Source: Parelaphostrongylus tenuis | Taxonomy: Eukaryota; Nematoda; Chromadorea; Rhabditida; Metastrongylidae | Length of the DNA stretch: 64,000 nucleotides | Reading direction: 5' to 3' | NCBI GenBank assembly: GCA_019055375.1 | Contig: JAHQIW010007397.1 | Coordinates: 1-64,000, forward strand | Shown here: positions 2,500 through 64,000 of the stretch, in pieces | How positions within the stretch are numbered: position 1 is the stretch's first letter | How the letters are laid out: every line of letters begins with the position of its first letter | Notes under the pieces: generated by a model | The model's database searches: none | What the model saw: the letters and a program-made list of their open reading frames with translations, nothing else | What the model was told of the DNA's origin: nothing | Program-made: the position numbers and the translations under genes

Positions 2500-4615
2500 T
2501 GAACTCAGTGGCTTACGTGCGTTTTAGCAGTTTCGCCTGCCTAGCATGAGCCACACGTCCCATTATAGGAATCAAGAACTACACAGTATGAAAAGCAAAC
2601 AGCATTAAATGTTGTCTGAGTTGTTGTATAGTCGGTGGCTAACGGCTTTACATGTTATATACAATCATGATATGAAAAAAAGGTGTTCAACAAGAGTTCA
2701 AACATGATGGCGATATCCTTGCTCTAGAAGATAACTACAAATAGATGGAACCTAGCCTCTTATTGCTCCTTTCTCCTTTCCTGAGATTGTGTGAACAAAG
2801 TGTGCAAGCGATTCCCGAAAAAGTAGGTGCTAGTTTGTAGCCCACCAATGATTCCGTGTTTTGCTCGTATCGCAGTTTCGATTGTAATTCACACCACACC
2901 GTGCCACGAAAAAGGGCCGACGCTAGGCAAAGTTGCAAATTGTTATTTTGACTGCGAAGCGTTTCAATAATTGGAGCTGTTGCAGCTTCATTGAGAATAC
3001 GTCACATGTCTACATCGTTTCGCTCTTCACCAATGATTCGGCATGAAGACATACTGCCCAAAAAGTAATTCCCCAATTACGAGCCTTTTTGTCTGTCACA
3101 CCTCATCACCGACCAAATCCCGACACTATAACACTCCGCCAGCGCCGACGAGGATTGCCGGCTTTCCGTGTGCTGCGGCTTGCGTCACATAGGTGTTCGG
3201 ATCGGATCTCGTGGCGACACCGCGAGGCACTTGAGGGTGTTGGCTCTCAAAAACGTAACCAACTGTTCTTTGTCCGAATGGCAGTGCTAGTATTACGTTT
3301 TCCGTCGTACTGACTAAGTGCTCCGGAAAAAGCCGTTAGTTTAAAGGTAATGATGTTACCTTGAATAAAGACTACATGAGTAGCTTCATTAGTCATTTAG
3401 GTTTAATGCGAGCTCCTTACTTTTGATTTCAGAGGACGTTTCTTTAAGAAATCACCTGTGACTTTACACAAATTCTGAAAGTGCTCAGATTTGATATAAG
3501 ATTCACTCTTTACTCCAAACCCTGCCCTGTAATTAGATCTTGAGAAAATTTTTCAAAACCAGCAATTTAGAGAGCAATATATTTTCTTTGATCATTGTGA
3601 TAGCATCTCTTAGAAAGCCCTGGCTTAAACTAGAGCGTCGATGGTTAGTGTTGGCTTCAAAACTACTTCGTTGCTTTCCTTGATAGTTCACTCATAACAG
3701 CGAGTTTTTACATTAGAAATCATAAGAAACCTCTTCGAAAAGTGGTTGACATTCTATCTCTTTAATTTCTCATCAATTTATAATCTTCTTTATGAAGATA
3801 CCTTAAGTTATGAAAGACGTGTTAATTAGCAAATTATTTAAAGTATCCTATTTTTGAATAGTTTTTCTCGAATATAAATAATTCGACTTATATTCTCATA
3901 GGAGCTGTGTTGACCAACCTAAACATTGCCATTATCAAGTATAAATTTTATTTCTATGCTCTTTTCTCAACTGGCTTGTTACATTGGTGGTCAAACAGAT
4001 GTCAGAAAAAATTCTGAAATTTTAGCTTTTTTACGCTAATCAATCGTACTTTTTTTGACTGAGCCTGTAGCAGAAGGTTGGTGATAAAAAATTTCGACTG
4101 GAGTTTCGATATCTTTGCCTTCCTCAAAGTCAATGATTTGACTAAATTGTCTACTACCATTTGTTCTCGATGTGGATTTATTTTCGTTGTCGATCAAGTC
4201 GAACTTTTTTCAGTGGAGTGCCACTCAAATGAAGAACCTCGCTCAGCGACGCCCTTATAAATCCAAGATGGATGGTTCGTGGGCTGATTGCCCGCCTATA
4301 GTGATAATACATACTTCTTTTTTCGGAACCATGAATCGTTTCGAACTACTATAAGGTTTAATGCTAGTTGTAATAAAAGTGATTCCTAGAAGATAGAATG
4401 CAAAGATAACAAGTGCGTATTATCGCTATTAGCGGGTAATTAGGATAAGCACCATCTATCCTTCGTATCAGAACATAGCAGAATGCGATTATTCATTCGA
4501 GTGGAATCAATCCTGAATAAGGTGATGAAGTCAGGAAGGTAGTCGAATAAATCCTTATTTTTGTCACGTGCTGCAGTTAATCAACATAAAGTATTCATAG
4601 TAATAATTGTATCGC
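2500..4615. other. No gene supported
   Basis: Includes a moderately GC-rich stretch (about 3,090-3,310) with an unrecognised open frame. I see no domain, and the rest is AT-rich. Confidence 0.5.
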
Positions 4616-4619
4616 TCGT

Positions 4620-5045
4620 TTTGAACGTTTTCATGAGACCACGCTCAAATTTCAATGTATCTGATAATTATTATTGAAGCCAACACGTCAAGTGGTCTGT
4701 TATGGGCACTTGTACAGCCCGATACACGTGTTTCGGCCTTGGCAGCCTAGTCAGTCGGCTAGGCCTTTCGTCTTTAGCCAGTACTCTCGGAGCAATCCAT
4801 ACCACCATGCATAGAGTAGGCAACGATGTACGATTTACACATGCCGTCAAGTGAAGTCATTAAATCGGCGGTGTTGTACACTTGATAGCTCTTGGTTGGT
4901 ATTTTTGAAAAATATTTCACCGTTCGTTTCGAGTGTTGTTTTAAGAAAATGCTTAAATGTTGGATCAAATAATAATTACCAGATAATTGAAATTTTGATC
5001 GTGGTATTAAGAGGATGCTCGAAACGAACGGTATTGAAATAAACA
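4620..5045. mobile_element. Foldback element, family F copy 1
   Basis: Shares CCCGATACACGTGTTTCG and flanking blocks with copies at 6.7-7.2 and 45.2-45.7 kb. An internal inverted repeat pairs CCGTTCGTTTCGAGTGTT (about 4,919) with GCTCGAAACGAACGG (about 5,017). No coding frame. Confidence 0.6.
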
Positions 5046-6689: not shown

Positions 6690-7210
6690 GTCATTGTTTG
6701 TTGACATTGTTATTGACATTCGGGCAGTTGCCCTTTCTCGTCTTTTGCTAATCTCTGTGGGTGCTCCAGTCCCCACAATAAGAGTCAACGACGACGTACG
6801 ATTTACACTCTATGTCCAGTAAAAAACTCACCAAACCCAGAGTGTTGTACACTCGAATGCTCGTGGCTAGTATATTCAATATATCATATCTTTTGTTTCG
6901 AGTGTTTTCTTAAGACCACAGCTCAAATTTTAATATGCCTGGTAATCATTATTTGAGCCACGCATGTCAGTGGTCTGTCAATGAGGGCTGACTTGTAGAG
7001 CCCGATACACGTGTTTCGATCTTGCGATCTCGTCAGTCGAGCAATTGCCCTTTCTCCCTAACGAGATCGCAAGATCGAAACACGTGTATCGCGCTCTATA
7101 AGTCAGCCCTCATTGACAGACCACTAACATGCGTGGCTCAAATAATGACTACCAGGCATGTTGAAATTTGAGCTGTGGTCTTAAGAAAACACTCGAAACA
7201 AAAGATAGGT
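6690..7210. mobile_element. Foldback element, family F copy 2 with ~150 bp arms
   Basis: Arms at about 6,890-7,035 and 7,058-7,206 are near-perfect reverse complements (for example GTTTCGAGTGTTTTCTTAAG and its complement), separated by about 23 nt. Outer parts match the other two copies. No transposase, so it is a non-autonomous foldback/MITE-like element. Confidence 0.75.
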
Positions 7211-57413: not shown

Positions 57414-57806
57414 CTGGAAACGGAACAAATTATAGCAGAAAAGACCAAAGATTCTCCCTAATAAAACACGTCACTACGACTAACATCGGCAAATCACTCA
57501 CCTAAGAAACTAAAAAGTTGATTTCTGTCATACCTAATGCTGGCAGATACTCAAAATTGTACGCATCCAAAGTGACTAGTAAATCCTTACAACAATATCA
57601 GCACCATTAATATATTTTCGACAAGGTCTAATTTCCTTCACTGCCTCAGAGGCACCTAATTTCATGTCGTGACGGACCTACTGGTTTCTACGACAACTTA
57701 TTTTGAGTGCTTTTCTGCAGCTTTTATATCTATCAGTTCCGCACAATGACTATAATTCGTGCTATCGACCGCTTTTTTACAGACCCGATCAAAACGATGA
57801 GGGAGG

Positions 57807-57854
57807 GTGCTACTGATGAGTCCCAAAAGGACGAAATAGGCGCCTATATAGCAC
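57807..57854 (+). ncRNA. Hammerhead ribozyme (type I-like, minimal stem III)
   Basis: The invariant core is complete. Stem I is GTGCTA (57807-57812) with TAGCAC (57849-57854), six perfect pairs. Box CTGATGA is at 57813-57819. Stem II is GTCC (57820-57823), loop CAAAA and GGAC (57829-57832). GAAA follows at 57833-57836. Stem III is a very short palindromic hairpin (57836-57847). The predicted cleavage is after the ATA triplet at 57846-57848. A further outer helix (GGG at 57801-57803 with CCT at 57859-57861) is possible. It lies antisense to the FN3 receptor, upstream of its most 5' exon found. Minimal stem III forms are known from metazoan retroelements. Activity is inferred, not shown. Confidence 0.85.
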
Positions 57855-57899
57855 TAGACCTATCGGCTCAAAACATGTAATATACTATAATTCGTCATA

Positions 57900-62265: not shown

Positions 62266-62471
62266 CCTTTGATACTTCATATTGGCACGTAAAGCTTTTA
62301 CATTTTATTTTTTCTAAACACTGATAGCTTATTGATATCAGAACGTTGTAGAAAAATCGAACCAGAGTAGCTATTTTCTTGTGATAATTTACAAAGTGAC
62401 TTTTTTCGGGAAAAGTTCATCGAGTGGTAATTTGAATAGCAATTTACTCTTAATTAACTTCAATTCCTATT

Positions 62472-63940
62472 TTCTTCTTTAAGCAAAACACGAGGTGTTA
62501 CATCAAACTTTATTTCACAGCTAACGTTTCGGCAGTTCGCCTTCTTCAGAGCCTGGAAAGGTCAAATTGTCCGCAATCAAAACAGTCAAACACCTCCATT
62601 ACTCCTTTAGAATTAATCACCAAACCTAGATTTCACCCGTATCATGCACAAAATCAACTCTCAACATACTCACCGCTTTTTATATGGTTCCATGGAATGA
62701 TTCAAATGGAGATTACCGGAAGGAGAGACACATAGGCCCGTAATGTACCCTACCCATCAAAACTACAGTCTTATATACTGACTCAAATCACGTGTGATAA
62801 CGAGGCATTCATCCCTGCGGTTTATAGTTGGATTGGTGGTATTAATCCAAAGTGCTTCAAGAATTTCTCGCGGTGATGTTTTTTGCTCTTGCGCAAGGGT
62901 GGTGACTTTGATCTCAAAATTCTCTCCGTTGTGCTTACAACGTCGAGTTTTTGGTCTTCCAATGTATGTACCGGGGAGGAGCAGAGAGTAGGATCCGTGA
63001 AACTGGCTCGGGAAATAGCCACTTCTAATGAGTTTGAACTTTTAATCCCTCGGATCAGGTTTAGAGGAAAGAGTACGCCTCCAAACGAAAACTCGAATGA
63101 AAGGAAAGTCCCGTTCATCCTCCCGCTCTTTTCAAATAAGATTAGTACAGGTATAAAACGCTGTTTGAAAAGAGCGGGTTTAGAGCAATCGGTGGCCATT
63201 ATAGAAATATCACCGAATACTCTAAGACGCCAACTAGTTCGCAACCGATTATATGACCGTCTCTGCATAATGAAAGATTGTAAAATATGTCCTAACGGCA
63301 GAGACGGTGATTGCATGAGCGTAGGTACAGTCTACCTCATCTCTTGCAAAGCGTGTAGCGATAAATATATTGGCGAAACGGATAGGCCGCTCTATGCCCG
63401 CACAGAAGAACACCTAGCTGATAAGCGTCTTAAAAGACGGAACACCCCGCTAGGAACGCATAGAGCACAGAAGCACGACGGAGTTGATTTTGAAATCGAA
63501 GTCACCATCCTTGCACAAGAGCAAAAAACATCACCGCGAGAAATTCTTGAAGCACTTTGGATTAATACCACCAATCCAACTATAAACCGCAGGGATGAAT
63601 GCCTCGTTATCACACGTGATTTGAGTCAGTATATAAGACTGTTATTTTTGATGGGTATGGTGCATTACGAGCCTATGTGATCTCCTTCCAGTGATTCCCA
63701 CTTGGATCATTCGGTGCGACACACATAAAAAGCGGTGAGTATGTTGAGTGTTGATTTTGTGCTTGATGTGATTGAAATCTAGGTCTGGTGATTTTCTTCA
63801 AGGGAGTTATAAAGGTATTTGGTTTATTGGATTGCAGACAATTTGACCTTTCCAGGCTCTGAAGAAGGCGAACTGCCGAAACGTCGGCTGTGAGTAATGT
63901 TTGATGTATCACCTAGTGTTTTGCTTAAAGAAAAAAATCA
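62472..63940 (+). mobile_element. Penelope-like element 3' part with inverted 3' end copy
   Basis: A forward segment (about 62,945-63,940) encodes the C-terminus of a Penelope-like polyprotein with a GIY-YIG endonuclease. To its left (about 62,472-62,944) lies an inverted copy of the same 3' end, giving two arms of about 450 bp. Matching pieces include the TTTGACCTTTCCAGGCTCTG block and the terminal AGTGTTTTGCTTAAAG on the right, with their complements on the left. Inverted 5' copies of this kind are typical of Penelope-like insertions. The reverse transcriptase core is not seen. Confidence 0.8.
62945..63680 (+). CDS. Penelope-like element GIY-YIG endonuclease C-terminus (5' truncated)
   Basis: An open frame runs from 62883 to 63680, but its first part reads through the inverted arm, so element coding starts near 62,945. 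Key features are the Cys-rich linker CKICPNGRDGDC, the GIY-YIG signature VYLISCKACSDKYIGETDR, PLYARTEEHL, the LGTHRAQKHDG segment and the C-terminal ILEALWINTTNPTINRRDEC. In Penelope-like elements this domain follows the reverse transcriptase and nicks the target. Here the reverse transcriptase is missing, so the copy is not autonomous. The frame is intact, suggesting a fairly recent insertion. Confidence 0.8.
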
Positions 63941-64000
63941 GGAATTATATTGAAGCATGCGAAGCTTAATAGACAGTCGGCCTTGGGAATTGTTTAATTC

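What the first reader, a model, noticed from the sequence alone, without database searches (positions are those of the whole stretch)
57807..57854. Hammerhead ribozyme with complete conserved core in a nematode genome
All invariant elements are present in order: CTGATGA, a 4-bp stem II with CAAAA loop, GAAA, a minimal palindromic stem III, an ATA cleavage triplet and a perfect 6-bp stem I. Chance occurrence of this whole arrangement is very unlikely. Minimal stem III hammerheads are known from metazoan retroelements, where they often act as dimers. I do not recognise its host sequence here. It is antisense to the FN3 receptor transcript, so it may belong to an unrecognised non-autonomous retroelement or a recently exapted ribozyme.
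Basis: partly seen in the sequence, partly recalled or inferred. Interest (0 to 1): 0.88.

Follow-up and report, generated by a model that had tools for sequence, protein, structure and literature searches.

The report
Nematode hammerhead retrozyme with Penelope-type ends
A genuine self-cleaving RNA motif (by sequence and structure) sits in a nematode genome; it belongs to a family of tiny non-coding jumping elements whose inserted copies carry the same unusual two-ended scars as a protein-coding Penelope-like element in the same genome, which suggests what machinery moves them.

Summary
The hammerhead at 57,807-57,854 (+) is real: RF00163 27.7 bits, E 3.5e-4 in 1.7 kb, below the gathering score of 34. 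A structural descriptor finds it and one more in the window, none in 100 shuffles. It sits in a 123-bp insertion between 12-bp target-site duplications, one of many dispersed copies of a non-coding, tandemly repeating unit of about 282 nt: a metazoan-type retrozyme in a nematode. Of 68 loci read (5 duplicates dropped), 50 copies are head-to-head inverted, with variable inner joins; outer ends fall at two places about 48 nt apart, and 39 of 40 copies with both ends typed have one 'short' and one 'long' end. An abundant Penelope-like element (PLE) of the same genome, also in the window, shows the same in 5 of 5 pairs read at both ends. Best reading: PLE protein moves the retrozyme by target-primed reverse transcription from both target strands at two internal RNA sites. 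Shown: ribozyme structure and insertion architecture. Inferred: cleavage, RNA circles, PLE mobilisation. Retrozymes, head-to-head PLE copies and PLE tails are already published; the combination looks like a new variant of a known kind.

The parts
57807..57854 (+). Hammerhead ribozyme (type I topology); predicted cleavage between 57848 and 57849
   Evidence: RF00163 27.7 bits; descriptor hit, none in 100 shuffles; compensatory changes in homologues
57761..57883 (+). The whole inserted retrozyme copy (123 bp): a long-end arm (57761-57798, inverted) joined to a short-end arm (57799-57883) that carries the ribozyme
   Evidence: Homology to the unit ends here and the TSDs begin
57749..57760 (.). 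Left target-site duplication ACTATAATTCGT
   Evidence: 12-bp perfect direct repeat, spacing 135
57884..57895 (.). Right target-site duplication ACTATAATTCGT
   Evidence: 12-bp perfect direct repeat, spacing 135
57761..57798 (-). Long-end arm: inverted tail segment of the unit
   Evidence: Mapping on the 282-nt unit
57849..57883 (+). Sequence 3' of the cleavage site up to the short end (5' arm of the conserved tail hairpin)
   Evidence: Sequence; unit alignment
62462..63994 (+). Penelope-like element in the same window, head-to-head, of the candidate mobiliser family; limits approximate; reading frame 62877-63680 with a GIY-YIG domain
   Evidence: PF01541 E 1.7e-7; long end (+109) on the right and short end (+61) on the left; positions
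7000..7042 (-). Second hammerhead of the window, from a second retrozyme family with a similar tail hairpin
   Evidence: Descriptor hit, sequence, tail alignment; not reported by Rfam at E<=3

Best explanation
The ribozyme belongs to a non-coding, non-autonomous retroelement (a metazoan-type retrozyme) of a probably strongylid nematode. Transcripts of tandem units are cut by the hammerhead (inferred), giving monomers or circles of about 282 nt (inferred). A Penelope-like element protein (GIY-YIG nuclease plus reverse transcriptase) binds the RNA just 3' of the cleavage site, cuts the two target strands some 9-14 bp apart, and primes one cDNA from each cut strand at two internal RNA sites about 48 nt apart (inferred from the fixed outer ends). 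The two cDNAs are joined at a variable place, which gives a head-to-head insertion with one short and one long end between target-site duplications (the architecture is shown; the steps are inferred). The window copy is a very short product of this, 123 bp long.
For: Dispersed copies. Tandem units of about 282 nt, e.g. L028, L074, L084. Of 68 loci, 5 duplicates dropped, 50 copies are head-to-head and none tail-to-tail; of the 40 with both outer ends typed, 39 have one short (38-57, median 46) and one long (84-105, median 94) end, binomial p 7e-11 against equal chance. Identical words of >=10 nt are shared by the two flanks in 20 of 50 copies against 0.6% of mispaired flanks, >=8 nt in 28 of 50 against 2.8%. 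The 50 inner joins fall at 38 distinct places, and joins at similar places differ in letters in most cases (L004 and L007 look alike). The PLE: one frame tested (L035) has RVT_1 and GIY-YIG; 150 copies scored, the limit, of 20594 candidates. Of 33 PLE ends read in 30 loci, 18 lie at 55-73 and 14 at 103-122 after its hammerhead-like motif, 1 at 41 (five of the 18 have the same flank and are probably one insertion); 5 of 5 head-to-head pairs read at both ends are one short, one long. In 8 of 10 further pairs fetched as 196-bp windows the long end is seen on one side and no tail on the other. A purified PLE cuts and extends both target strands and starts RT at two adjacent internal RNA sites (PMC11167929, text parts 1 and 2 of 4 and passages). 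A rotifer PLE paper describes head-to-head inverted pLTRs with a 'tail' optionally at one of them (PMC3846280, passages). Ribozyme pairs: 96.7% of cells paired against 89.5% shuffled, 0 of 500 as high.
Against: No RNA data: cleavage, circles and transcription are untested. The retrozyme tail is not similar in letters (by eye) to the tail of the PLE examined, and the end spacings differ somewhat (about 48 against about 43 nt), so another PLE family could be the partner; weaker GIY-YIG traces occur near some retrozyme loci. L060 has two short ends; 10 of 50 head-to-head copies have at least one untyped end, and 17 further segments are single-armed (11 short, 3 long, 3 other). 14 of 50 head-to-head copies share no flanking word of 7 nt or more, and some shared words are AT repeats. 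The window's own PLE (L029) shows no clear duplication by eye. In one search two of five covariation measures do not clearly exceed the shuffles (24 and 322 of 500 as high). The tail hairpin shows only weak covariation: 89.0% of cells paired against 86.3% shuffled, 17 of 500 as high. The anole PLE paper saw no difference of RT start site between the two strands, which does not by itself predict one short and one long end per insertion; it also found ribozyme cleavage unnecessary for insertion in vitro.
Confidence: 0.75

Rival explanations
1. The repeats are solo or truncated pLTRs of an autonomous PLE family not yet seen here, not an independent retrozyme.
For: Similar geometry to PLE ends: ribozyme, then two end sites 40-50 nt apart; PLEs carry hammerheads (PMC11167929).
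Against: In the 68 retrozyme loci the mapped copies consist of unit sequence, apart from up to 46 nt at inner joins, with unit-to-unit tandem junctions; the longest open frame over three joined units is 62 codons. GIY-YIG matches lie in 7 of the 68 loci (L014, L019, L020, L026, L066, L067, L081), at differing distances and strands; in L081 the unit has its own 12-bp TSD.
Confidence: 0.17
2. A DNA transposon or MITE with terminal inverted repeats that happens to contain a ribozyme.
For: Inverted outer parts and target-site duplications.
Against: The two ends differ (short and long) rather than being identical inverted termini, inner joins vary (38 places in 50), units occur as tandem multimers, and single-armed truncated copies exist.
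Confidence: 0.02
3. Chance hammerhead-like sequence or an inert satellite repeat.
For: Rfam score below the gathering cut-off for this copy; free fold of the region not unusual.
Against: None of 100 shuffles contains the descriptor; homologues covary in stems; copies are dispersed with TSDs.
Confidence: 0.03
4. The window copy was exapted as a functional antisense ribozyme of a host gene.
For: Its core is intact.
Against: Ordinary insertion structure; its loop II (CAAAA) is shared by another copy (L017); a host transcript is not established.
Confidence: 0.03

Closest known systems
Metazoan non-LTR retrozymes (Cervera and de la Pena 2020, PMC7229834; passages)
   Same: Type I hammerhead, non-coding tandem units of about 150-450 bp, GC below 50% (here 44%), TSD longer than 4 bp, PLEs in the same genome.
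   Different: Most copies read here are head-to-head inverted with one short and one long end; the passages seen describe tandem repeats, and the words 'nematod' and 'inverted' do not occur in that paper's main text.
Penelope-like elements with hammerheads and tails (Frangieh et al. 2024, PMC11167929, text parts 1-2 and passages; A. vaga Penelope, PMC3846280, passages)
   Same: Head-to-head inverted copies, TSD, a tail of similar length at one end (31 bp in the rotifer, 30-40 bp as stated for Penelope), ribozyme upstream of the end sites.
   Different: No ORF in the retrozyme; the unit repeats on itself; tail letters are not those of the PLE examined.
Plant LTR retrozymes (PMC4918200; listing and abstract start only)
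   Same: Non-autonomous, hammerhead.
   Different: Type III hammerheads, LTRs, PBS and PPT, 4-bp TSD (as described in passages of PMC7229834 and PMC7761336); here the hammerhead is type I and the TSD 12 bp; LTR, PBS and PPT were not searched for.
Schistosoma hammerhead satellites / W-elements (PMC8490949, passages only)
   Same: Repeated units in a parasitic worm, a possible TSD at one element.
   Different: Flatworm; satellite-like; no short/long end rule in the passages seen.

Membership tests
Hammerhead ribozyme, type I (RF00163) | Conserved core CUGANGA..GAAA..NUH with three stems | tested here: met
Hammerhead ribozyme, type I (RF00163) | Score at or above the Rfam gathering threshold (34 bits) | tested here: not met
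   27.7 bits for the window copy; family copy L004 reaches 35.5 and 20 of 69 genome matches exceed the cut-off
Hammerhead ribozyme, type I (RF00163) | Self-cleavage | not testable with these tools
   needs in vitro transcription
Metazoan non-LTR retrozyme | Tandem units of about 150-450 bp each with a type I hammerhead, GC below 50% | tested here: met
   unit of L028: 282 nt, GC 44%; tandem in L028, L074, L084; the window copy itself holds less than one unit
Metazoan non-LTR retrozyme | No protein-coding capacity | tested here: met
   longest open frame 62 codons over three joined units
Metazoan non-LTR retrozyme | Target-site duplications longer than 4 bp when present | tested here: met
   12 bp in the window; word of >=10 nt shared in 20 of 50 copies
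Metazoan non-LTR retrozyme | Expressed as small circular RNA | not testable with these tools
   no RNA reads; only a circular fold z-score of -2.7 for one unit
Penelope-like element (as a member) | ORF with RT and GIY-YIG domains | tested here: not met
   the mapped insertions are unit sequence; the unit is non-coding
Penelope-like element (works like) | Head-to-head inverted insertions with a tail at one end and TSD | tested here: met
   39 of 40 typed copies, TSD-like words of >=8 nt in 28 of 50; the PLE itself 5 of 5
Penelope-like element (works like) | Mobilised by PLE protein | not testable with these tools
   inferred from shared insertion architecture

The most novel reading that the evidence does not exclude
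Animal retrozymes are moved in trans by PLE proteins that prime both cut target strands at two different internal sites of the template RNA, one site per strand, so that a complete insertion keeps one short and one long end; a tail hairpin shared by otherwise different hammerhead families of this genome is the recognition signal. Genomic copies would thereby record the two-strand priming that the papers read here show only in vitro.
Probability: 0.5. Interest if true: 0.8.

Novelty: new variant of a known kind. Interest (0 to 1): 0.62.

Why it matters
A review leaves open which autonomous element moves animal retrozymes: it says that the repeats show no conserved motif that would identify it, while naming PLEs/Terminons as likely candidates (PMC7761336, passages). 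The insertion scars found here - TSD, head-to-head arms, one short and one long end, at a spacing close to that of a co-resident PLE - point to PLEs and give a directly testable prediction. They also suggest a rule for PLE integration (two strands, two internal start sites, one of each per insertion) from many insertions with different joins. In nine full-text searches of the held library I saw no title or abstract start describing natural retrozymes in nematodes; most subscription journals are not held, and the key PLE-hammerhead paper (doi 10.1093/molbev/msu232) could not be read.

Tried and rejected
Exaptation: dropped, because the copy has an ordinary TSD-flanked insertion structure. DNA transposon/MITE: dropped, because ends are non-identical and inner joins vary. 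An inherited inverted master copy for joins near unit positions 52/233: considered because 8 copies, the window's own included, share that region; their letters at the join mostly differ, so a hot spot is likelier, but the window copy was the query, which biases this subset. A 'one lap' stop of the cDNA at the short-end site: weak statistics (12 of 71 arms stop at 45-70 against 6.5 expected, p 0.037), and the search terms select for arms with certain parts, so it is not claimed. A tail shared in letters between the retrozyme and the PLE examined: not seen by eye. Gene context: FN3 exons only sub-threshold. The exact genome count of the main family failed because the search machine was busy, as did the third family's; the second family's exact 32-mer core has 893 copies. 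Rfam reported neither the PLE's own hammerhead-like motif in L029 (E<=1) nor the window's second hammerhead (E<=3); those two rest on sequence and descriptor only. Rfam microRNA matches, mostly in AT-rich repeats and all below gathering scores, were taken as noise.

Rows dropped before counts: L013, L018, L062, L064 and L086 as duplicates or the same place fetched twice (L013 judged by its shared inner join and AT-rich flanks; L022, with the same join, was kept). Head-to-head was decided from the first and last mapped segment; the three rows of L075 may be one interrupted insertion. In one search only two-segment head-to-head copies were used. In one search the PLE loci L029-L058 and four duplicates were left out. 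In one search the pair of L048 was not counted because its plus end is cut by the locus end; L103/L104 (tail to 92, partner not recognisable) and L107/L108 were not counted.

Full report
Observation. The sequence at 57,807-57,854 (+) reads as a complete hammerhead: 6-bp stem I, CUGAUGA, 4-bp stem II with loop CAAAA, GAAA, a 4-bp stem III closed by GCGC, and the triplet AUA, with cleavage expected between 57,848 and 57,849. Rfam's Hammerhead_1 model matches all 45 positions at 27.7 bits, E 3.5e-4 for 1.7 kb, below its gathering score of 34. A strict structural descriptor, written after seeing the motif, finds this and one other motif in the 64-kb window and none in 100 dinucleotide-preserving shuffles. 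A free fold of 146 nt around it is not unusual (z -0.38).

It is an insertion. The 123 bp from 57,761 to 57,883 are bounded by a perfect 12-bp direct repeat, ACTATAATTCGT, at 57,749-57,760 and 57,884-57,895. A search of the genome with this region gives 104 matches with 40 of 1,674 first-look candidates scored, so the copy number is a lower bound. A search with another part of the unit gives 53 matches, 40 of 2,439 candidates scored.

The unit. Copies such as L028, L074 and L084 show direct tandem repeats of about 282 nt, numbered here from the cleavage site. The unit of L028 has 44% GC, no open frame longer than 62 codons over three joined units, and a circular fold with z -2.7. Of 69 matches of RF00163 reported in the genome (74 of 119,811 candidates scored), 20 exceed the cut-off, and the 20 fetched loci (L059-L078) all align to this unit, some at only about 72% identity. 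Among 100 hammerheads picked by a descriptor in the fetched loci, paired exchanges occur in all three stems, e.g. stem III pair U-A to C-G (81 and 12 cases); in stem II, and for most of stem I, they lie between families rather than within the main one. On 15 aligned ribozymes (14 distinct) 96.7% of cells pair against 89.5% in shuffles; three of five measures exceed all 500 shuffles, but the number of pairs with a change on both sides (24 of 500 as high) and the number of pair types (322 of 500) do not; every slid register is far lower in paired cells.

Architecture of the copies. In 68 retrozyme loci, after five duplicates were left out, 50 copies are head-to-head (an inverted arm followed by a direct arm), 17 segments are single-armed (11 short, 3 long, 3 other ends), and none is tail-to-tail. 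Forty of the 50 have both outer ends typed: short ends lie at 38-57 (median 46) and long ends at 84-105 (median 94) after the cleavage site. Thirty-nine of these 40 have one of each; the exception is L060, a divergent copy with two short ends. Ten have at least one untyped end. If ends were chosen independently and equally often, 39 of 40 would have p 7e-11. The flanks share an identical word of 8 nt or more in 28 of 50 copies against 2.8% of mispaired flanks, and of 10 nt or more in 20 of 50 against 0.6%; 14 of 50 share no word of 7 nt or more, and some shared words are low-complexity AT repeats. Inner joins fall at 38 different places in 50 copies, and those near the window copy's own join mostly differ in letters. 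The copies are therefore best read as mostly independent insertions.

The candidate mobiliser. The same window holds a Penelope-like element at about 62,462-63,994, with a GIY-YIG domain (E 1.7e-7). A relative in the genome (L035, the one frame tested) has RVT_1 and GIY-YIG on one frame; 150 copies were scored, the limit, of 20,594 first-look candidates. The best protein hit (74% identical) has no name; the next ones are from the strongylids Ancylostoma, Necator and Haemonchus, and the genome carries 20 exact SL1-type spliced-leader sites against 0 for the control, so a strongylid nematode is likely. Of 33 PLE ends read in 30 loci, 18 lie at 55-73 and 14 at 103-122 nt after a hammerhead-like motif, and 1 at 41; five of the 18 have the same flanking sequence and are probably one insertion. 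In all 5 head-to-head pairs that could be read at both ends (L029, L034, L054, L045/L046, L049/L050) one end is short and one is long; by eye four of the five show a shared flanking word, L029 does not clearly. In 8 of 10 further pairs, fetched as 196-bp windows, the long end is seen on one side and no tail on the other, from which the short end is inferred; for two of the eight the short end was already visible (L058, L053). Two pairs could not be interpreted. The PLE's long tail translates as MPRLIDSRSWELLEEVP, which looks like the start of its frame; the rotifer PLE pLTR and tail likewise cover the first amino acids of the ORF (PMC3846280, passages).

Reading. The published anole PLE protein cuts and extends both DNA strands and starts cDNA at two adjacent internal sites of its RNA, which correspond to the genomic 'tail'; no difference of start site between the strands was seen, and ribozyme cleavage was not needed for insertion in vitro (PMC11167929, text parts 1 and 2 of 4 plus passages). 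The rotifer PLE paper describes head-to-head inverted pLTRs with the tail optionally on one of them and proposes self-priming (PMC3846280, passages). The retrozyme copies carry the same signature without an ORF, so I infer that a PLE protein moves them in trans, and that the two outer ends are the two cDNA start sites, one per target strand. A hairpin GACC..GGCTCAAA..TTATCAGAT..TTTGAGC..GGTC next to the ends recurs, in part or whole, in the main family, in a second hammerhead family (L009, L034 and the window at 6870-7000 and 4610-4720) and beside a degenerate hammerhead-like motif in L104. It may be the recognition signal, but covariation in it is weak: 89.0% of cells paired against 86.3% in shuffles, 17 of 500 as high. 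The PLE examined does not share its letters, so the partner may be another PLE family; this is the weakest link.

What is shown and what is inferred. Shown: hammerhead sequence and its conservation, dispersed copies, tandem units, TSDs, head-to-head arms, the one-short-one-long pattern, and the same pattern in the PLE. Inferred: cleavage, circular RNA, the use of PLE protein, one start site per strand. Not established: any role of this copy in a host gene; fn3 matches nearby are sub-threshold.

Known or new. Animal retrozymes, PLE head-to-head copies and PLE tails are published. In nine searches of the held library I saw no title or abstract start on natural retrozymes in nematodes, and the word stem 'nematod' does not occur in the main texts of PMC7229834, PMC7761336 and PMC3088659; the library lacks most subscription journals. 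The head-to-head retrozyme with PLE-type ends is a new variant of a known kind and speaks to the open question of what moves animal retrozymes.

Noticed in passing
window 7000-7042 (-), within about 6890-7200: A second complete hammerhead from a different retrozyme family, itself in a head-to-head copy. A related exact 32-mer ribozyme core has 893 copies in the genome; among the first 100 places listed, the 9 close opposite-strand pairs seen by eye are all minus-then-plus, and C314 has three in tandem 319-320 bp apart.
   Followed up: partly
L074 (961 -, 1189 +) and L073 (1770 -): A third hammerhead family with a 5-bp stem II (GGAGG/CCTCC) and stem I GGGTCA/TGACCC; the L073 copy is degenerate.
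   Followed up: no
L034, L117/L118: PLE copies appear to be inserted in the loop of the second retrozyme family's tail hairpin.
   Followed up: no
window 62462-63994: Head-to-head Penelope-like element with a minimal hammerhead-like motif (CTGAAGA..GGC..GCC..GAAA) at 62527-62549 (-) and 63859-63881 (+); the L029 copy of this stretch was not scored by Rfam.
   Followed up: partly
window about 4640-4800 (-) and 4960-5035 (-): Degenerate remains of the second retrozyme family, with a recognisable tail hairpin.
   Followed up: no
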